This document shows positions 13,394 through 26,264 of a stretch of 64,000 nucleotides of DNA, in pieces. The stretch is from Nitrosomonas oligotropha. Lineage in GTDB: Bacteria > Pseudomonadota > Gammaproteobacteria > Burkholderiales > Nitrosomonadaceae. The stretch covers positions 1 through 64,000 of the forward strand of contig NZ_FNOE01000013.1 of the NCBI RefSeq assembly GCF_900106555.1. Direction: 5' to 3'. The notes beneath the pieces are model-generated. The model had not been told where the DNA came from. It did not search any database and saw only the letters and a list, made by a program, of their open reading frames with translations. The position numbers and the translations under genes were made by a program. Numbering within the stretch: position 1 is the first letter of the stretch; every line of letters starts with the position of its first letter.

Positions 13394-13688
13394 CCACAGC
13401 AACCTTATCCAGCCAGCTGCAAAATTCTTTGTCCGGCAGATTGAGAAAGCCAAGATAACAGTTGATCAAAAGCGCTGTTGCTTCTTCACATCCGCGTTAA
13501 CTTTACGCTTCGCAAAATTATCTCATAATCCAAATTAACTAATCACTCAAATTAATTAATTTTAAAAGTGATTTTTCTCACAGTAACTGATATTTAATTT
13601 AGGGTATACTGCCGCGGCATTTTAATGAATGCAATAGTTTATCCTAATGAGACAAATAGTTACTACCACCTTTCAGGGAGAAAGCACG
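13394..13688 (+). promoter_or_regulatory. AT-rich leader of the Ig-repeat gene
   Basis: This 295-bp gap is AT-rich in its second half. A TATACT hexamer at 13603-13608 could be a -10 element for the large gene that follows; no convincing -35 was seen. I saw no small gene and no strong hairpin. Confidence 0.3.
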
Positions 13689-16600
13689 ATGGCTGCTAAT
13701 TCGGCGAATCAGAAAGCAAATTCATTTGAGCAAAATTCCAAAGCTCAGAATGACAGTTTCACGGATTTAAACAACAACCGTGACAGCTTCATACTTAATG
13801 TGCTGGCAAATGATCAAGGTGGCTTATTAAAAGTATTATGGTCTCTGGACGAAGGCAGCGGTACCTGGAACGAACCCAGCGATTTGTTGACCCGTGATAA
13901 TTACGACGCGATTAACTATAGCGAGCTAGGCGCGCAGATTTCGATCACCAAATTTGGTACCGTTTCTTACGTTATTACACCGGAATTGCAAGCAAAACTT
14001 AAAGATCTATCAACCGGCGAGAGCTTAACCGATACCTTTATCTACGCCATGAAGGTCGGTCAAGGCAATAGCCCGCTGAGCTGGGCTAAGGCAACAGTGA
14101 CACTCAACGGACTGAATCATGCGCCGGAACTGACCGGAACGACTGCCATTCTGCCGAATGGAACGGAAAACACCGGCTATGAAATCCTAACAAGCGATTT
14201 GCTGAAGGGTTTCACTGATGCCGATAAGGATGAAATAACAATCAAGAATCTGTTGGTTACTCATGGTACGCTGACAGAAACCGCAACCGGCTGGATCTTC
14301 ACCCCGGAAAGCAATTTTTCCGGCGATGTCGAATTAAGCTATGACATTGTGGATGGTCATGGCGGAAGCCTGGGCGCGACGCTCAAATTCACACTTGAAC
14401 CTGCATTTCTGGACACGGATCCACCCGCTCTATTATTTTCCGAACCTGCTGATGACTCTGCGGCAGTTCCTGTTAATGATAATATTGTTTTACATTTCAA
14501 CGAAGTAGTCGTACCGGGATCCGGTAATATCATTGTTACTAACGGCACGGATACTCGCCTCATTGCTGTCGATGATAGCAACCAGGTGATATTTAGCGGC
14601 AGCAAGGTCACCATTAATCCCAGTGCCAACCTGGTGCCCAACACCGCTTACCATGTCGAAATGGCCAGTGGCGTACTAGCCGATCTATCCGGAAACCCTT
14701 ACACTGGAATGAGTGACTCATCAACGCTCAACTTTACAACAATTGCCGATACCGTTCCACCGGCTCTAAATTGGAGTTGGCCATTTGACGGGCAGCTATT
14801 CAAGGCCAATGACAATATCACCTTGGTTTTCAATGAAGAAATCATGGCAGGGACCGGCAACATCATCATCAGCAACGGAACTGATACCCGAAGCATCGCA
14901 ATTGACGATGCCGGCCAAGTAGCTATCAATAACTTCACCGGACTCGGCACCGCCAATGGCGGCATGATCACCATCAATCCTACAGAAGATCTGATTCTTA
15001 ATTCTACCTATAGCATCCAGATTGCCGCTGGTGTGGTTACCGATACATCAGGTAATGCTTGGGAAGGAATCAGTGATGCGCTGAGCTTTAATACGGTGGG
15101 GTCTGGTCCACTTTTATCTTGGAGCAATCCGTGGGACGATTTCACCGATTTTCAAGTGGACAGCAATATCGAGTTATCCTTCGATGAGGCAATTAAACCG
15201 GGTACCGGCAATGTTATCATCAGCAACGGCTCGGATACGCGCACCATCTCGATCAATGACAGCAGCCAAGTAATATTTGATGGTTTTGCGAATGTAATCA
15301 TTAATCCAACAACCAATCTGGTTCCCAATACCCATTACAGTATCAAGATCGATAGCGGTGCCATCACCGACCTGGAGGATAACCCTTACACTGGAATCAG
15401 CAACGATACGACACTTGATTTCTCTACAGTCACGACCGAGCCTCAGCTGAATGGCAGCTATCCTAGTGATGATTCCACCGGTTTCCAAGTAGATAAAAAT
15501 ATTGAACTCTTTTTTAATGAGCAGGTTAAGTCTGGCAGTGGCGGCAATATCATTATCAACAATGGTTCCGATACACGCACCATCGCTATTAATGATGCCA
15601 GTCAAGTCAGCTTTGATAATTCCAATAGAGTTGCCATTAATCCAACTGCCGATCTGACCCCCAATACTCATTACAGTATCAAGATCGATAGCGGCGCCAT
15701 CACCGACCTGGAGGGTAACCCTTACACTGGAATCAGTGACGACACATCGCTTGATTTTTCTACAGTCACAGGCGAGCCTCGATTAACCGGAAGTAATCCT
15801 TGGGATGATTCCACCGGGTTCCAAGTGGATAAAAATATTGAACTCTATTTTAATGAACAGGTTAAGTCTGGCGGTAGCGGCAATATCAATATCAGCAATG
15901 GTTCCGATACACGTACAATCGCTATTAGTGATGCCAGCCAAGTCACTTTTGACGGTTATAGTGGTGTAATCATCAATCCAACAACCGATCTGGTCCCCAA
16001 CACCCATTACAGCATCAAGATCGACAACGGCGCCATTACCGATTTGGATGGCAATGCTTATGCCGGTATCAGTGATGAAACCACACTCGATTTTTCGACA
16101 ATTACGAGCGAACCTCGTCTATCTGGTAGCAATCCTGGAGACAATTCCACCGATTTTCCAGTTGACAGTAACATTCAGTTATCCTTCAATGAAGAGGTTA
16201 AAGTCGGTAGCGGCGGCAATATCGTTCTTAGTAATGGCTCCGATACACGCACCATTGCGATTAATGATGCCAGCCAAGTCACTTTTAGCGGAAGTAAGAT
16301 GATAACCATCGATCCGACTGCCGATCTGATTCCCAACACTAACTACAGCATCAAAATCGACAACGGCGCCATCATCGATCTGACCGGTAATCCTTACGCC
16401 GGAATCAGCGACGACACCACGCTCAACTTCTCCACCGTCACCACCGAACCACGTTTATCCTGGAGCAATCCTTGGGATGGGTTCACGGATTTCCAGGTTG
16501 ACCAGAATATCGCTTTGTCCTTCAATCAGGCAATTAAGAGTAGTGGCAGTGGTAACATCATTATCAGCAACGGTTCCGATACACGTACCATCTCGATCAG

Positions 16601-17873
16601 TGACAGCAGCCAAGTTGCATTCGATGGTTACAATAGCGTAATTATCAATCCAACTACCGATCTGATCCCCAATACGCATTACAGCATCAAGATCGACAAC
16701 GGCGCTATCACCGATCTGGATGGTAACCCTTACGCCGGAATCAGCGACGAGACCACGCTCGATTTCTCCACAACCACGAGCGAACCTCGGCTAACCGGAA
16801 GTAATCCTTGGGATGATTCCACCGGTTTCCAAGTGGATAGAAATATTGAACTCTATTTTAATGAGCAGGTTAAGTCCGGCAGCAACGGCAATATCATCAT
16901 CAGCAATGGTTCCGATACACGCACCATCGCCATCAATGATGCCAGTCAGGTCAGTTTTGATAATTCCAATAGAGTCGTCATTAATCCGCTAGCCGATCTG
17001 ATTCCCGACACGCATTACAATATCAAGATCGATAGCGGCGCGATCACCGATTTGACCGATCATGCCTACGCCGGTATCAGCGATGACACCGCGCTTGATT
17101 TCACCACCATCACGGGCGAACCTCGTCTCGATGGCAGCATTCCTGGTGACGATTCCATCGATTTCCAAATTGATCGGAATATCGAACTCTATTTCAATGA
17201 ACCGGTTAAGCCTGGCAGCAGCGGCAATATCATCATCAGTAACGGTTCCGATACACGCACCATTTCGATCAATGACCGCAGCCAAGTCACATTCGATGGT
17301 TACACGGCTGTCATCATCAATCCAGCAACTGATTTGGTCCCTAACACTGACTACAGCATTAGAATCGATAGTGGCGCCATTACCGACTTAATCGGCAATC
17401 CTTATGGTGGTATCAGTGACGATACGTCGCTTAACTTTACGACGATACCTAGCAACCCTCTGTTGACTAGCAGTTCACCGGTGGATAATGCCAGCGATGT
17501 TGCAGTGGGTGACAACATCGCCCTCTATTTCAACGAGGCGATAAAACCGGCAATCGGTCACATTGTGATCAGCAGTGATTCAGATACACGGACGATTTCA
17601 ATCAATGATTCCAGTCAGGTTACTTTCAGCAGCAGTAAATTCGGCGGCAATCAAATCATTATTGATTCGGCAGCCGATTTGGTTCCCAATACGACTTACC
17701 ATATTGAAATTGATGCCAGCGCGATCACCGATACCGCCGGAAATAATTACGCGGGAATCAGTGATGACACTACACTCAATTTCACGACAGCTGATAGTGC
17801 TGGATTTTCTCTGGCGACACCGTTAGTTGTCGGCGTATCAAGTTTTGACGAACAGTTTTTTCCAGTTCTCTAA
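13689..17873 (+). CDS. Large secreted or surface protein with ten bacterial Ig-like repeats
   Basis: This 1394-residue protein has an N-terminal part (1-240) with VCBS/cadherin-like segments (ILNVLANDQGG, LTGTTAILPNG, GFTDADKDEITIKN) and then ten tandem Ig-like units of about 105-115 residues, each with xPDDxSxxFxVDxNIxLxFNE, NGSDTRTIxI and LxPNTHYSIxIDxGAITD. These resemble the SbsA-type Ig domain (Big_5). There is no Sec signal peptide and the C-terminus (SSFDEQFFPVL) resembles an uncleaved type I secretion tail, so export by a type I system is likely; none is encoded here. ATG 13689 has GGGAG 8 nt upstream. Probable role: adhesion or biofilm matrix. Acidic, Asn/Asp/Ser/Thr-rich composition fits an extracellular protein. 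Confidence 0.8.
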   Translation: MAANSANQKANSFEQNSKAQNDSFTDLNNNRDSFILNVLANDQGGLLKVLWSLDEGSGTWNEPSDLLTRDNYDAINYSELGAQISITKFGTVSYVITPELQAKLKDLSTGESLTDTFIYAMKVGQGNSPLSWAKATVTLNGLNHAPELTGTTAILPNGTENTGYEILTSDLLKGFTDADKDEITIKNLLVTHGTLTETATGWIFTPESNFSGDVELSYDIVDGHGGSLGATLKFTLEPAFLDTDPPALLFSEPADDSAAVPVNDNIVLHFNEVVVPGSGNIIVTNGTDTRLIAVDDSNQVIFSGSKVTINPSANLVPNTAYHVEMASGVLADLSGNPYTGMSDSSTLNFTTIADTVPPALNWSWPFDGQLFKANDNITLVFNEEIMAGTGNIIISNGTDTRSIAIDDAGQVAINNFTGLGTANGGMITINPTEDLILNSTYSIQIAAGVVTDTSGNAWEGISDALSFNTVGSGPLLSWSNPWDDFTDFQVDSNIELSFDEAIKPGTGNVIISNGSDTRTISINDSSQVIFDGFANVIINPTTNLVPNTHYSIKIDSGAITDLEDNPYTGISNDTTLDFSTVTTEPQLNGSYPSDDSTGFQVDKNIELFFNEQVKSGSGGNIIINNGSDTRTIAINDASQVSFDNSNRVAINPTADLTPNTHYSIKIDSGAITDLEGNPYTGISDDTSLDFSTVTGEPRLTGSNPWDDSTGFQVDKNIELYFNEQVKSGGSGNINISNGSDTRTIAISDASQVTFDGYSGVIINPTTDLVPNTHYSIKIDNGAITDLDGNAYAGISDETTLDFSTITSEPRLSGSNPGDNSTDFPVDSNIQLSFNEEVKVGSGGNIVLSNGSDTRTIAINDASQVTFSGSKMITIDPTADLIPNTNYSIKIDNGAIIDLTGNPYAGISDDTTLNFSTVTTEPRLSWSNPWDGFTDFQVDQNIALSFNQAIKSSGSGNIIISNGSDTRTISISDSSQVAFDGYNSVIINPTTDLIPNTHYSIKIDNGAITDLDGNPYAGISDETTLDFSTTTSEPRLTGSNPWDDSTGFQVDRNIELYFNEQVKSGSNGNIIISNGSDTRTIAINDASQVSFDNSNRVVINPLADLIPDTHYNIKIDSGAITDLTDHAYAGISDDTALDFTTITGEPRLDGSIPGDDSIDFQIDRNIELYFNEPVKPGSSGNIIISNGSDTRTISINDRSQVTFDGYTAVIINPATDLVPNTDYSIRIDSGAITDLIGNPYGGISDDTSLNFTTIPSNPLLTSSSPVDNASDVAVGDNIALYFNEAIKPAIGHIVISSDSDTRTISINDSSQVTFSSSKFGGNQIIIDSAADLVPNTTYHIEIDASAITDTAGNNYAGISDDTTLNFTTADSAGFSLATPLVVGVSSFDEQFFPVL
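14418..17792 (+). repeat. Tandem ~330-bp repeats inside the Ig-like gene
   Basis: Ten coding repeats follow each other without spacers. Units 3 to 9 are very alike at DNA level (for example the segments encoding NGSDTRTI and PNTHYSIKID recur nearly unchanged), while the first two and the last are more diverged. Such arrays change copy number by recombination. Confidence 0.85.
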
Positions 17874-21873: not shown

Positions 21874-23031
21874 ATGACCAGCATGTTTAAACCCATCCCG
21901 ATAAAGAAAATAACCCTTTTCTATACAAAGTGTTGTGCCTATATCGTTGTGCTTTGCTGGTGCAGTCTTGCACATGCCGAACCCATACAACTCGGCATGA
22001 GCACTTCGCTCAGCGGCCCCAATCAGTTATTGGGACGCGCCATGTACCTGGGTATGAATGCTTTGTTCGAGGAAATCAATCAGCAAGGCGGTATTCGCGG
22101 CCGCATGATCAATCTGACCGTACTCGATGACGGTTATGAGCCGGATAGTGTCAAGGTGAACACGATGCAGTTGATTGATCAGCATAAAGTCATCGCGATT
22201 GTCGGTAACGCCGGTACGCCGACGGCGGCGATTGCCGCACCCCTTGCCAACGCACGCGGCGTAGTATTTTACGGCGCTTTCACCGGCGCCGATCTATTAC
22301 GCAAGATTCCGCCGGATCCTTATATATTCAACTTCCGCGCCAGCTACCGGCAAGAAATGGAGTTGATCGTGCAGGATATTCTGGAGCGCGGTATTTCTCC
22401 GTACCGCATTGCACTCTTTTTGCAGGATGACACGCTGGGACAGACCGGCTTCGACATCACCAAAGCGGTCTTGGAAAAATCGGGTTTCAAGCATACCGAC
22501 CGGCTGCTGGTCACGTACTACCCGCGCAATTCTTTAGCGATACAAAGCGCAATCAAAGCAATGATTCAAGCAACACCGAAGCCCGAAGCGATCATCATCG
22601 TGGGCGCATACCAACCCGCCGCGCAGTTTATCCGCTTTTCTCACCGCATTTTTCCCAATGCGCGGTTTTATAACTTATCCTTTTCCGCCGCTTCGCTATT
22701 GGCCGATGCCCTACCCGGCATCCATGGGCGAATCTATATGACCCAGGTGGTGCCGCCCGCGGAAACCGGCTCCGAGGAACAAGACTTCATCTGGCGCGAA
22801 GGTTATCTTGCGGCACAGGTTCTGGTGAAAGCGCTGCAAAGCATCCCCGGTGAAATCAGCGGCGACACCCTGAAACAAGCATTGGAGGCGTTAGGATCGG
22901 TGAATTTGGAAGGTTTTGGCACAGTCACCCTAAATCCCGGCGATCATCAGGCAAGCGATCATGTTTGGCTGACGCATCTGGATAAAACCCGTCAATGGAA
23001 TAGCGTGAAAACCACTGGAGAAAATAATTGA
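21874..23031 (+). CDS. Periplasmic type-1 ligand-binding protein (Leu/Ile/Val-binding type)
   Basis: The 385-residue protein has a signal peptide ending near AHA-EPIQLG (residue about 36) and a type-1 periplasmic-binding fold (LGMSTSLSGPNQLLGRAMYLGM, then INLTVLDDGYEPDSVKVN and VIAIVGNAGTPTAAIAAPL). These proteins bind amino acids or similar small ligands. No branched-chain amino-acid ABC permease or ATPase is present; instead the next gene, overlapping by four bases, encodes a Cache/ligand-gated channel. I infer that this protein presents a ligand to that channel rather than to a transporter. The related receptor domains of animal glutamate receptors share the same fold. Confidence 0.88.
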   Translation: MTSMFKPIPIKKITLFYTKCCAYIVVLCWCSLAHAEPIQLGMSTSLSGPNQLLGRAMYLGMNALFEEINQQGGIRGRMINLTVLDDGYEPDSVKVNTMQLIDQHKVIAIVGNAGTPTAAIAAPLANARGVVFYGAFTGADLLRKIPPDPYIFNFRASYRQEMELIVQDILERGISPYRIALFLQDDTLGQTGFDITKAVLEKSGFKHTDRLLVTYYPRNSLAIQSAIKAMIQATPKPEAIIIVGAYQPAAQFIRFSHRIFPNARFYNLSFSAASLLADALPGIHGRIYMTQVVPPAETGSEEQDFIWREGYLAAQVLVKALQSIPGEISGDTLKQALEALGSVNLEGFGTVTLNPGDHQASDHVWLTHLDKTRQWNSVKTTGENN

Positions 23032-25214
23032 AGGGAACCCAGCAACTTGAATCGCCGGAACAAGCGAAGTGGACATTCATTTCCTGGATCAAGGGAATTC
23101 TCGGTATTTGCATGGTCATCTTCCTATGCATTTTTATTGCGTCAACCAATGGTATGGTGCAGAAATACCGCACCACCATGCAGCTATCGCAACAACATGC
23201 ACTGGCCACCACGCAAACCATTGCCGATTCGATTAACGATCAATTAGCCGCGTTGGCTTCCGCCGCCAATGAACTTGCGGAAAACTTGCGGGAAATTTCT
23301 TGGAGCCAGGAAACAATTAATACCGCATTGAATGAAGCGGCGCTCAATCATTTTGGTTTCAATGCATTGGGTGTAGCTTTCGATTTATACCAAGCTGACC
23401 CCCAACTGCGTTTGTTTGCACCCTTTATCCGCCAGCAAGGCACGGCCTATCAACTGGACCGGATCGATCAGTATTATGACTATACCGGTCATGCGGCGTA
23501 TAGCGCGAAAAACGGCAACAGCAAGAACAGTGACTGGTATCTGCAAGGCACCGGCGGAAGAAGCGGTTGGCTGGCGCCCTACTTTGATATGGCCTATCAG
23601 CAGCATACGCTGAAGTATGTCGTGCCGTTGCAAAAAAATACCGAAGCCAGAAAAGTGGCTGGCGTGGTATTTTTGGATATCGATCTGGATTGGGTCAGGC
23701 AGCAAGTCGAGAACCACGATGTAGGCGATAATGGTTATGCGATCGTCGTCAATGAATTCGACCAAATTATCTATCATGGACTCAAAGGTTCCAAGAAAAT
23801 CGTCAGTGACTTGAATCAAGCCATTACGCCGACTTACTTTGCCGAATTCACTGCGGGAAAATTAGGGACTAATGAGCTCACCGATCGCTCCGCCTGGTTC
23901 AACCGCTATCCCATCGGCGAAACCGGGTGGTATGTGTTAACCGTGATGAATGCGGAAATCGGCAAGACGCACTTGTTTGAGAACGATAGTGACGAAGATA
24001 CCCGAGTAATTCACGAATCCGATTTGATCAGCTGGATCGTCAATGCTGTCGTGTTGTGCCTCCTGATTTATATCTGGATTGCGTTCATCAAACAGCAGCA
24101 ATCGGTTGCGCAATTGTTACGGCATGCATTTATCACGTCATTACTGCTGACCGTGGGCATCGTGTCGATCTGGATCACGGAATATTACACGCCCTCAGTG
24201 ACCCGCAATCAATTGCTGACACTATCGAATCGCGCGATCGTCGAGCAATTTCAGAACGACTTTGCCGTCGCTGCTCTGCAGGAATCAAAAACACCGCCCT
24301 TTTTTGTTCCAACGGGCTTGTTCATTCAGTCGATTGAATTTCAGAACGCGACCAACGTGGCGATAACCGGCTATATATGGCAGCGCTTTCCCAGGCATTT
24401 TGAAGAAGATATCGAACATGGCGTCATTTTTCCCGAAGCCATAGAAACATCCATAACCGAAGCGTATGAACACGAGGAAGGCGATGAAATCGTCAAAGGT
24501 TGGTATTTTGAAGCCACATTGCGAGAAACCTTCGATTACAAAATATATCCTTTCGACCGGCAACTTCTCTGGGTACGTCTCTGGCATACCAGTTTTTCCA
24601 AGAATGTCATTCTCGTGCCGGATTTTAAATCCTTCGACAGTCTGAATCCCAATACTTTGCCCGGTGTTGAACAGGATTTTGTTTTGTCCGAATGGAATCC
24701 ATCGCGGGCTTTCTTCGGAATCAAGGTGAATAAATACAACAGCAATTTTGGCGATCGTCAGTTCACCAGCCACGACAAGATGCCGGAACTGTATTTCAAC
24801 CTGGAAATCTCGCGCAATATTTTAAATCCATTCATTGCGCATTTATTTCCTCTGGCTGTGGTGCTGTTGATGCTATACGGACTCGTTCTAACCATCTCCA
24901 AACAGGAAGCGAAACTGACACTCACCGGTTTCAATGTATCGACCATCGTCGCCGCGTGCTCGGCGCTTTTTTTCATCTTATTGATTATGCATGTGCAGCT
25001 AAGAGACGAACTGGCGGTAAATACCATTGTATATTTGGAATATTTCTATCTTGTCTCCTACATTACAATTTTGATGGTAACCGTCAATGCCGTGCTGATT
25101 TCATATGATCCGCCGCTCGGGATATTGGCATTTAAGGATAATTTCATTCCAAAACTTATTTATTGGCCGATCTTGCTGACTTGGATTTTTACCATTACCG
25201 CCATTCTATTTTAA
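23028..25214 (+). CDS. Cache-domain fused to a pentameric ligand-gated ion channel (pLGIC)
   Basis: The 728-residue membrane protein has, in order: a TM helix (about 20-42), a periplasmic double-Cache sensor (about 43-320), two TM helices (334-355 and 366-388), a beta-sandwich ligand domain (390-598) and four C-terminal TM helices (M1 601-624, M2 630-654, M3 669-692, M4 708-728). The Pro-loop YPFDRQ (507-512) matches the family's FPFDxQ motif and lacks the animal Cys pair. ISR before M1 with a Pro in M1, VSTIVA in M2 and VTVNAVL in M3 match my memory of GLIC (ISR, VSTLIA, VTVQHYL). The start is TTG overlapping the binding-protein stop, with GGAG 7 nt upstream. It likely opens an ion pore in response to a ligand. 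The channel assignment is strong; ligand and ion selectivity are unknown. Confidence 0.85.
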   Translation: MKGTQQLESPEQAKWTFISWIKGILGICMVIFLCIFIASTNGMVQKYRTTMQLSQQHALATTQTIADSINDQLAALASAANELAENLREISWSQETINTALNEAALNHFGFNALGVAFDLYQADPQLRLFAPFIRQQGTAYQLDRIDQYYDYTGHAAYSAKNGNSKNSDWYLQGTGGRSGWLAPYFDMAYQQHTLKYVVPLQKNTEARKVAGVVFLDIDLDWVRQQVENHDVGDNGYAIVVNEFDQIIYHGLKGSKKIVSDLNQAITPTYFAEFTAGKLGTNELTDRSAWFNRYPIGETGWYVLTVMNAEIGKTHLFENDSDEDTRVIHESDLISWIVNAVVLCLLIYIWIAFIKQQQSVAQLLRHAFITSLLLTVGIVSIWITEYYTPSVTRNQLLTLSNRAIVEQFQNDFAVAALQESKTPPFFVPTGLFIQSIEFQNATNVAITGYIWQRFPRHFEEDIEHGVIFPEAIETSITEAYEHEEGDEIVKGWYFEATLRETFDYKIYPFDRQLLWVRLWHTSFSKNVILVPDFKSFDSLNPNTLPGVEQDFVLSEWNPSRAFFGIKVNKYNSNFGDRQFTSHDKMPELYFNLEISRNILNPFIAHLFPLAVVLLMLYGLVLTISKQEAKLTLTGFNVSTIVAACSALFFILLIMHVQLRDELAVNTIVYLEYFYLVSYITILMVTVNAVLISYDPPLGILAFKDNFIPKLIYWPILLTWIFTITAILF

Positions 25215-25250
25215 CCGCTTGCCTTCAGTGCCACGATACCAGGAGCAACC

Positions 25251-26264
25251 ATGGAAGATAATCAATCGCCCGATCCTTATAAACAAACGAGTCTGAGGTA
25301 TCAGCTCTACCGGGAAGCACGGGCCATGGCCGAATACGCGCTTGCCAACGGCAAAACGGTACCGGATAAAGTGATACGTACCATCGATACATTTACTGTG
25401 CAGAGCGATACCAGTTTGAATGACCGGATTCATGTCCGGGCCGATCTGGATATTGGTGAATTGCTTGCCGCACACTGCGCATTGGCCAGAATAGTGGAGC
25501 CCGCCAAACCGAATACCATTCTGTTGCTGGATATCGAACAAGGGGTTACCGGGTTCATGAAATTTCTCGGCCCGGTTTCATTGATCCGCCAGATGATGAT
25601 CGCGGCTATCATATCGCTGATGTTATTCATCGGACTGACATTGACCGAAGAAGTAAGCCACGACAGCGGCAATATTATGTTGCAAGATGGCTTGGAATTG
25701 TTACTTAATCTAATGTTCTATCTGGCCGCAGCCGGATTAGGCGCTTCGTTTGCCGCACTGTATAAAGCCAATACGTTTATCGCTAACGGGACCTTTGATC
25801 CCACCTATCATGCTTCCTACTGGATTCGTTTCTTTCTTGGCCTGATTGCCGGCTTAATTCTCGCCATCATGGTTTCCGAGGCGTACTTTAGCAAACACTT
25901 GAGTGAAACGCCTTTCCTGGAAAAGGGTATTATCCGGCCATTACTGGCCATGCTCGGTGGATTCTCCGCCGATCTTACACACACGGTTTTAAGCCGCTTG
26001 GTTGAAACCATCCGGTCGCTGTTCACCGGCAGCCCGAAAGATCAGATTGCCAATAAGAAGAAAGCCATGCAGGTTGATTTCGCCGCGCAACAAAACCAGC
26101 AACACATCAATATGGCTTCCAATCTGATTGATCTCCAGCAGGTGATCAACAGCGGTGCGACACCGGAAGAAATCAATCAGAAAATTGATCAAATATTAAA
26201 AGATGCGCTGCCTAATTCGGATATCCGGCTAAAATCCTCCGGAAAACAGGATGATGACAGTTAA
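25251..26264 (+). CDS. Membrane protein of unknown function in the channel operon
   Basis: I do not recognise this 337-residue protein. It has a soluble N-terminal part (1-110), three clear membrane helices (about 115-132, 148-171, 191-209), a fourth possible one (227-248) and a charged C-terminal tail (250-337) with a probable coiled coil (NMASNLIDLQQVINSGATPEEINQ split at 285-310). AGGAG lies 5 nt before the ATG. It follows the channel gene by 36 bp on the same strand, so it is probably an accessory or signalling subunit of that system. Confidence 0.75.
   Translation: MEDNQSPDPYKQTSLRYQLYREARAMAEYALANGKTVPDKVIRTIDTFTVQSDTSLNDRIHVRADLDIGELLAAHCALARIVEPAKPNTILLLDIEQGVTGFMKFLGPVSLIRQMMIAAIISLMLFIGLTLTEEVSHDSGNIMLQDGLELLLNLMFYLAAAGLGASFAALYKANTFIANGTFDPTYHASYWIRFFLGLIAGLILAIMVSEAYFSKHLSETPFLEKGIIRPLLAMLGGFSADLTHTVLSRLVETIRSLFTGSPKDQIANKKKAMQVDFAAQQNQQHINMASNLIDLQQVINSGATPEEINQKIDQILKDALPNSDIRLKSSGKQDDDS

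What the first reader, a model, noticed from the sequence alone, without database searches (positions are those of the whole stretch)
21874..26264. Binding protein, Cache-pLGIC channel and membrane partner in one operon
Three genes in a row (4-base overlap, then 36 bp) encode a secreted type-1 binding protein, a Cache domain fused to a full pentameric ligand-gated channel (Pro-loop YPFDRQ, M1-M4), and an unknown membrane protein. There is no ABC permease or ATPase, so the binding protein probably feeds the channel. From memory, bacterial channels with extra sensor domains or linked binding proteins have been noted, but this three-part set with an internal Cache, two extra TM helices and the third protein may be undescribed. 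It would be a two-sensor ligand-gated ion channel.
Basis: partly seen in the sequence, partly recalled or inferred. Interest (0 to 1): 0.88.

Follow-up and report, generated by a model that had tools for sequence, protein, structure and literature searches.

The report
Ion channel with binding-protein partner
A Nitrosomonas-like bacterium carries a three-gene set in which a relative of animal nerve receptors, already fused to a second sensor domain, is paired with a soluble binding protein and an unstudied membrane protein, so it looks like an ion channel controlled by a separate binding protein.

Summary
Fold comparison supports both domains of the channel. Cache-pLGIC fusions and PBP-pLGIC fusions or gene pairs were described in 2004 (PMC549065), so the parts are not new. 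New here: the SBP is the only Peripla_BP_6 match in this genome, which has no LIV-type ABC permease (PF02653); an SBP lies beside the channel in 25 of 80 related loci, from several SBP families and in three arrangements; SBP and channel diverge in parallel. The third protein is a patchy, unnamed family. It flanks such channels in Nitrosomonas and two unrelated genomes, each time with an SBP, but also occurs elsewhere. Best explanation: the SBP binds its ligand, docks on the dCache domain (as LuxP does on LuxQ) and changes channel gating; the third protein is an accessory or downstream subunit. Pairing is well supported; docking, ligand, ion and the third protein's role are inferred. New variant of a known kind.

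The parts
21874..23031 (+). Type I solute-binding protein (Peripla_BP_6), 385 aa; the only such match in this genome
21874..21978 (+). Sec-type signal peptide of the SBP (residues 1-35, ending AHA); no lipobox seen by eye
   Evidence: read from sequence; hydropathy; cleavage site inferred
23028..25214 (+). dCache-pLGIC fusion protein, 728 aa, TTG start overlapping the SBP stop by 4 bases
23088..23144 (+). TM1 (residues 21-39)
   Evidence: hydropathy; inside a helix of the model
23172..23942 (+). dCache sensor domain (residues 49-305), predicted periplasmic
24033..24089 (+). TM2 (residues 336-354)
24105..24185 (+). TM3 (residues 360-386), probably the old pLGIC signal sequence kept as an internal helix (inferred: Cache-less homologues match from about here on)
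   Evidence: short forms
24216..24815 (+). pLGIC extracellular beta-sandwich (residues 397-596)
24546..24563 (+). Pro-loop YPFDRQ (residues 507-512); P508 invariant, D510 nearly so, among 39 sequences
24822..24914 (+). M1 (residues 599-629)
24936..25013 (+). M2, predicted pore helix (residues 637-662)
25029..25103 (+). M3 (residues 668-692)
25143..25208 (+). M4 (residues 706-727)
25251..26264 (+). Third protein, 337 aa, family without a name: soluble N-terminal part, 3-4 TM helices, C-terminal long helix
25581..25877 (+). Membrane segments of the third protein (residues 111-129, 147-168, 191-209)

Best explanation
The three genes make a multi-part chemosensory ion channel. Shown: the fusion protein has a dCache domain and a complete pLGIC subunit fold, and the SBP is its recurrent gene partner in a genome without a matching ABC permease. 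Inferred: (1) the SBP is secreted to the periplasm and binds a small ligand, perhaps amino-acid-like or another small polar solute; (2) loaded or empty SBP docks on the dCache domain, as LuxP docks on LuxQ; (3) the dCache may also bind its own ligand, and its movement passes through TM2-TM3 to the pLGIC beta-sandwich and opens or closes the M2 pore of a homopentamer; (4) the ion flux changes membrane potential or cytoplasmic ions; (5) the third protein is an accessory or downstream membrane subunit. Steps 1-5 have no experiment.
For: Domains. No PF02653 permease and no other Peripla_BP_6 match in a genome listed as 100% complete. SBP of the same subfamily beside the channel in 19 of 80 loci (one, L038, seen as a 70-aa piece at a contig end), including the 15 best-scoring. 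In 6 more loci an SBP of another type is beside it: L055, L061, L071, L096 Peripla_BP_5/6; L087 SBP_bac_5; L106 SBP_bac_3 plus PBP_like_2. Three arrangements: upstream same strand, downstream same strand, divergent. Same-subfamily SBP next to 16 of 53 Cache-bearing channels and 0 of 15 Cache-less ones, p 0.015 (12 of 80 rows dropped); without L084 (cut contig) and L113 (Cache on a separate ORF) 0 of 13, p 0.028. This hints that the dCache is the docking part. SBP and channel distances correlate, r 0.88, n 17, 0 of 5000 permutations as high. Third gene: adjacent in 6 of 80 loci and in G000, G008, G022, G040, G045 and G894 (some are the same records). It is in 9 of 50 channel-bearing genomes against 1 of 397 other genomes of the phylum. 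In the three lineages where it is adjacent, an SBP is adjacent too.
Against: No contact, ligand, current or transcript is shown. Neighbourhood and parallel divergence could reflect joint inheritance or joint transfer. In 55 of 80 loci I found no SBP next to the channel (several contigs are cut and not every neighbour was scanned), so the channel core need not have one. The Cache/SBP contrast follows the phylogeny: one clade (support 89) plus one outlier in a quick tree. In 71 same-genus genomes 34 have a Peripla_BP_6 match, 25 over the cut-off, many in longer proteins; SBP-sized ones in G010, G055 and G895 have no full-length channel in those genomes, so the domain family is not tied to the channel. 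The third gene is missing from one full-length-channel genome, G004, and stands apart from channels in G152, G499, G536 and G539. Its family gave 653 homologues against 54 for the channel, in searches that each scored only about 8000 candidates. Weak model for the third protein (pLDDT 69.6).
Confidence: 0.5

Rival explanations
1. Ligand supply without docking: the SBP only concentrates a solute in the periplasm, which then binds the pLGIC beta-sandwich or the dCache by itself. This is the mechanism proposed for the PBP and Cache partners in PMC549065.
For: Proposed in PMC549065 (passages). Same gene evidence as the best explanation.
Against: Does not explain why this SBP subfamily is found beside Cache-bearing channels only (16 of 53 against 0 of 15; 0 of 13 without two doubtful rows), though that contrast is confounded by phylogeny.
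Confidence: 0.25
2. The SBP and channel are a pair, but the third protein is an unrelated passenger with its own membrane role.
For: The third gene is not beside a channel in the four other contexts I looked at (L117, L133, L134, L135). G004 has the channel without it. It is also absent from 41 of 50 channel-bearing genomes.
Against: Adjacent to Cache-pLGIC plus SBP in three unrelated lineages and on either side of them. Enriched in channel genomes even without the four Nitrosomonas, 5 of 46 against 1 of 397, p 5e-5 (different profiles and taxon ranges). In G028 pieces of SBP and third gene remain together where the channel is gone.
Confidence: 0.35
3. The SBP is an ordinary ABC importer component that happens to sit here.
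For: The closest solved relative is labelled a probable Leu/Ile/Val-binding protein (4kv7).
Against: No PF02653 permease in the genome, while the same search finds it in 12 of 14 control genomes. Its neighbour in distant phyla is the channel. Among 99 genes around 16 of these loci, no ABC permease or ATPase family is in the 25 listed of 139 families, so none has more than 2 members; MFS_1 has 4.
Confidence: 0.05
4. The channel serves an extracellular contractile injection system (eCIS), for example as the sensor that triggers firing or release.
For: eCIS genes near 11 of 80 pLGIC loci, from archaea, Chloroflexi, Nitrospirota and proteobacteria.
Against: No match to the eCIS proteins used as queries among the ORFs of the 64-kb window. 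The genome has a single eCIS_core match, on another contig. In Nitrosomonas the link is with the Cache-less channels.
Confidence: 0.05

Closest known systems
MCP-N/Cache-ART-LGIC fusions (Methanosarcina, Cytophaga, Microbulbifer; PMC549065)
   Same: Extra N-terminal Cache sensor fused to a complete pLGIC. Methanosarcinaceae members are homologous here (L051, L057, L060).
   Different: The passages that I read report no stand-alone type I SBP beside such a fusion and no third membrane gene.
PBP-I-LGIC fusions and PBP-II-LGIC gene pairs (PMC549065)
   Same: A periplasmic binding protein is tied to the pLGIC by fusion or by operon.
   Different: Here a separate type I SBP is paired with a channel that also carries a Cache. 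L087 shows an SBP_bac_5 version together with the third gene.
DeCLIC (pLGIC with N-terminal domain; 9ev1, 7q3h)
   Same: pLGIC with an extra periplasmic N-terminal domain; among the best fold matches.
   Different: The lobes of its N-terminal domain are compared with, among others, calcium-binding domains (PMC12664993, passages), not with dCache. No extra membrane helices before the pLGIC and no SBP partner (recalled).
LuxP-LuxQ
   Same: SBP partnered with a receptor whose ectodomain is a tandem-PAS fold remotely like dCache (PMC5658362, passages; that LuxP is a type I SBP is recalled). Works-like model only.
   Different: LuxQ is a histidine kinase, not a channel.
ELIC and GLIC
   Same: pLGIC core fold; GLIC also by sequence profile, E 8e-4 to 8e-3.
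   Different: Single protein without a Cache or SBP partner (recalled).

Membership tests
Pentameric ligand-gated ion channel superfamily | Beta-sandwich ectodomain followed by four membrane helices | tested here: met
   Model: strands within 397-596, helices 599-629, 637-662, 668-692, 706-727. Foldseek DeCLIC 9ev1 E 1.8e-9, ELIC 6hjx TMt 0.62, GLIC 6zgk TMt 0.70.
Pentameric ligand-gated ion channel superfamily | Sequence relation to a proven member | tested here: met
   Profile of 23 channel halves finds GLIC-based chains at E 8e-4 to 8e-3, which is weak. No Pfam Neur_chan hit in 23 of 23.
Pentameric ligand-gated ion channel superfamily | Cys/Pro-loop with Pro and Asp | tested here: met
   YPFDRQ at 507-512; P508 invariant and D510 at least 90% conserved in 39 sequences.
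Pentameric ligand-gated ion channel superfamily | Assembles as a pentamer and conducts ions | not testable with these tools
   No multimer prediction or electrophysiology.
dCache_1 | Double PAS-like extracytoplasmic domain | tested here: met
dCache_1AA (amino-acid sensor) | Positively charged motif position before the aromatic pair, then Asp (motif shape from PMC10104139 passages; which PctB Arg it is, is recalled) | tested here: not met
   W170, Y171 and D217 are present, but the position aligned to that Arg of PctB is Ser168; in the 39 sequences it is Glu in 22, Arg in 3.
dCache_1AM (amine sensor) | AM motif incl. the PctD W155, M215, S217, R103/D133 positions | not tested
   Shared aromatic pair and Asp present; the other positions could not be aligned safely.
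Type I solute-binding protein (Peripla_BP_6) | Domain match and secretion signal | tested here: met
   140.4 bits over cut-off 31.7; 4kv7 E 5.4e-62; signal read from sequence.
ABC importer SBP (LIV-I type) | Cognate PF02653 permease in the genome | tested here: not met
   0 matches in the own genome; 12 of 14 control genomes positive.
LuxPQ-type SBP-receptor complex | SBP physically bound to the receptor ectodomain | not testable with these tools
   Only gene pairing shown.

The most novel reading that the evidence does not exclude
A binding-protein-gated ion channel: a detachable periplasmic SBP docks on the dCache crown of a homopentameric pLGIC and sets its gating, so that one channel integrates up to three ligand sites (SBP, dCache, pLGIC pocket), with an accessory membrane subunit of an unnamed family. 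Different SBP families have been recruited repeatedly to the same channel scaffold.
Probability: 0.4. Interest if true: 0.82.

Novelty: new variant of a known kind. Interest (0 to 1): 0.62.

Why it matters
What bacterial relatives of nerve receptors do for the cell, and which natural ligands they sense, is largely open (my knowledge). A recurrent SBP partner with no transporter gives a direct handle: identify the SBP ligand, then ask whether SBP plus ligand gates the channel. It would also parallel animal receptors that put binding-protein-like or Cache domains on channels (PMC549065 makes this comparison for NMDA receptors and the calcium-channel alpha2-delta subunit), and would be a modular scaffold for biosensors.

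Tried and rejected

Selection to keep in mind: one search kept the best 80 of 144 relatives; one search took 50 of those 80 loci; one search used 68 of 80 rows and gave the quick tree because the careful one did not finish; one search used 17 SBP-channel pairs (window plus 16; L036, L038 and L076 left out).

Full report
WHAT IS THERE. Three + strand genes lie at 21874-23031, 23028-25214 and 25251-26264, with a TTGA overlap and a 36-bp gap. Gene 1 is a type I SBP (Peripla_BP_6 E 1.5e-40; best solved relative 4kv7 E 5.4e-62) with a Sec-like signal ending LAHA. Gene 2 has a dCache_1 domain at residues 49-305 and no other Pfam domain above its cut-off. Gene 3 matches no curated family.

THE BINDING PROTEIN HAS NO TRANSPORTER. 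In the window's own genome (listed as 100% complete) there is no PF02653 match, although the same search rings in 12 of 14 control genomes. The SBP is the genome's only Peripla_BP_6 match. Across 71 same-genus genomes the domain is not rare (34 with a match, 25 over the cut-off), often in longer proteins. SBP-sized matches lie beside the channel in G000, G008, G022, G040, G045 and G894, but also occur in G010, G055 and G895, which have no full-length channel.

THE PAIRING IS REPEATED. A scan of species genomes kept 80 loci, the best of 144. An SBP of the same subfamily is next to the channel in 19 of 80, including all 15 best-scoring loci (in L038 only a 70-aa piece at the contig end). These come from alpha-, beta- and gammaproteobacteria, Nitrospirota and a bin labelled Saprospiraceae. 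Gene order differs: SBP upstream (Nitrosomonas, L041-L044), downstream (L045-L047, L049, L050, L078), divergent (L048, L056, L066, L076). Six further loci have an SBP of another kind next to the channel: L055, L061, L071, L096 (Peripla_BP_5/6), L087 (SBP_bac_5, E 7e-72), L106 (SBP_bac_3 plus PBP_like_2, divergent). That makes 25 of 80; I did not scan every neighbour of the other 55, and many contigs end early. SBP and channel distances correlate (r 0.88, n 17, 0 of 5000 permutations as high). Of 68 rows in a quick tree, the same-subfamily SBP occurs with 16 of 53 Cache-bearing and 0 of 15 Cache-less channels (p 0.015). Two of the 15 are doubtful (L084 is cut at the contig end, L113 has its Cache on a separate ORF); without them p is 0.028. 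Fifteen of 16 SBP rows fall in one clade of 16 (support 89), whose only other row is L084, where the neighbour cannot be seen; the label needs 3 changes against 10.6 in shuffles. The Cache contrast is therefore not independent of descent.

THE THIRD GENE. In close relatives, 6 of 101 genomes match; five are complete and sit directly after the channel. G894 adds another complete set. G004 has SBP (cut at the contig end) and channel but no third gene. G028 keeps only pieces of SBP and third gene together, beside the same kinds of flanking genes, and has no channel match. Outside Nitrosomonas the gene precedes SBP-channel in L044 and precedes channel-SBP in L087. It is present in 9 of 50 channel-bearing genomes tested, in 1 of 397 other genomes of the phylum, in 0 of 77 other genomes of the order of that one, and not as a full match in 368 others of the class (three weak partial matches). 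Without the four Nitrosomonas the contrast is 5 of 46 against 1 of 397, p 5e-5, with different profiles and taxon ranges. Against a fixed link: no channel is beside it in L117, L133 and L134, in L135 it lies before a hybrid histidine kinase, and its family is larger than the channel's in the searches (653 against 54). The one genome found by the third gene alone (G152, a Mariprofundaceae bin by the name) has only a partial channel-like match (E 8e-6).

LIGAND HINTS. The dCache has the aromatic pair W170, Y171 and D217 shared by amino-acid and amine sensors (motif relation from PMC10104139 passages). It lacks the positive residue of the amino-acid motif: Ser168 here, Glu in 22 and Arg in 3 of 39 sequences. 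So the Cache is probably not an ordinary amino-acid sensor. Several of the closest dCache structures belong to amine receptors, but these rows are near ties and prove nothing. ELIC is activated by primary amines (PMC3119659, abstract start in the listing).

MECHANISM. The best-supported reading is an SBP-dCache-pLGIC sensor channel. Docking on the dCache is inferred from the LuxP-LuxQ precedent and from the Cache-only occurrence of the SBP. PMC5658362 (passages) says the dCache fold is remotely like the LuxQ tandem PAS and that PBPs can be primary chemoreceptors that associate with a membrane transducer. The rival is simple ligand supply, as PMC549065 suggested.

PRIOR ART. PMC549065 (abstract, section 6 and passages of section 8 and others) already reports Cache-pLGIC fusions, PBP-I fusions and PBP-II neighbourhoods, and proposes chemoreceptor function. 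A 2016 inventory (PMC4795631) shows no occurrence of Cache, PBP or operon in its main text. The listings of ten literature searches showed no title on this three-gene set in an open-access library; the third family has no name to search for, and subscription papers were not searched. Hence: new variant of a known kind.

CHECK. Mended: the Cache-less count and its p value, the neighbour-scan wording (MFS_1 was matched by 4), the window's eCIS statement (now a search, no match), and the same-genus SBP result, which had been left out.

Noticed in passing
L043, L044, L050, L052, L060, L080, L099, L103, L104, L109, L110; also L008, L009, L011, L021, L022: pLGIC genes repeatedly lie near extracellular contractile injection system genes (eCIS_core/DUF4157 proteins, tail sheath, Pvc16) in 11 of 80 loci, from archaea, Chloroflexi, Nitrospirota and proteobacteria, at 25 bp to 4.6 kb. 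5 of the 7 Cache-less Nitrosomonas channel loci from the genome search have an eCIS_core-like gene within 300 bp (Pfam checks); some loci are the same records. One search for papers naming both found none, and PMC8213781 shows no 'ion channel' in its main text.
   Followed up: partly
L121:8181-9122 (G028): Remnant of the operon: short pieces of SBP and third gene beside the same kinds of flanking genes, channel gone; the stored record also has a run of N there.
   Followed up: partly
L152:1228-1785 (G152): Partial pLGIC-like match with an in-frame stop in the Mariprofundaceae genome that was found through the third gene alone.
   Followed up: no
L070, L072, L077: Two Cache-pLGIC genes in tandem, which would allow heteropentamers.
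   Followed up: no
P0173: A third-family protein fused to leucine-rich repeats (589 aa).
   Followed up: no
L135:387-4924: Third gene 282 bp upstream of an 1108-aa hybrid histidine kinase with receiver and Hpt domains.
   Followed up: no
L090:5471-7828: Chemoreceptor (HAMP, MCPsignal) upstream of a Cache-pLGIC in Marinibactrum.
   Followed up: no
window 23172-23942 (dCache): The profile's dCache part also reaches the calcium-channel alpha2-delta-1 subunit at E about 0.01, in line with PMC549065.
   Followed up: no
window 13647-17873: A 1408-aa ORF upstream; only its first 70 residues were seen and it was not examined.
   Followed up: no
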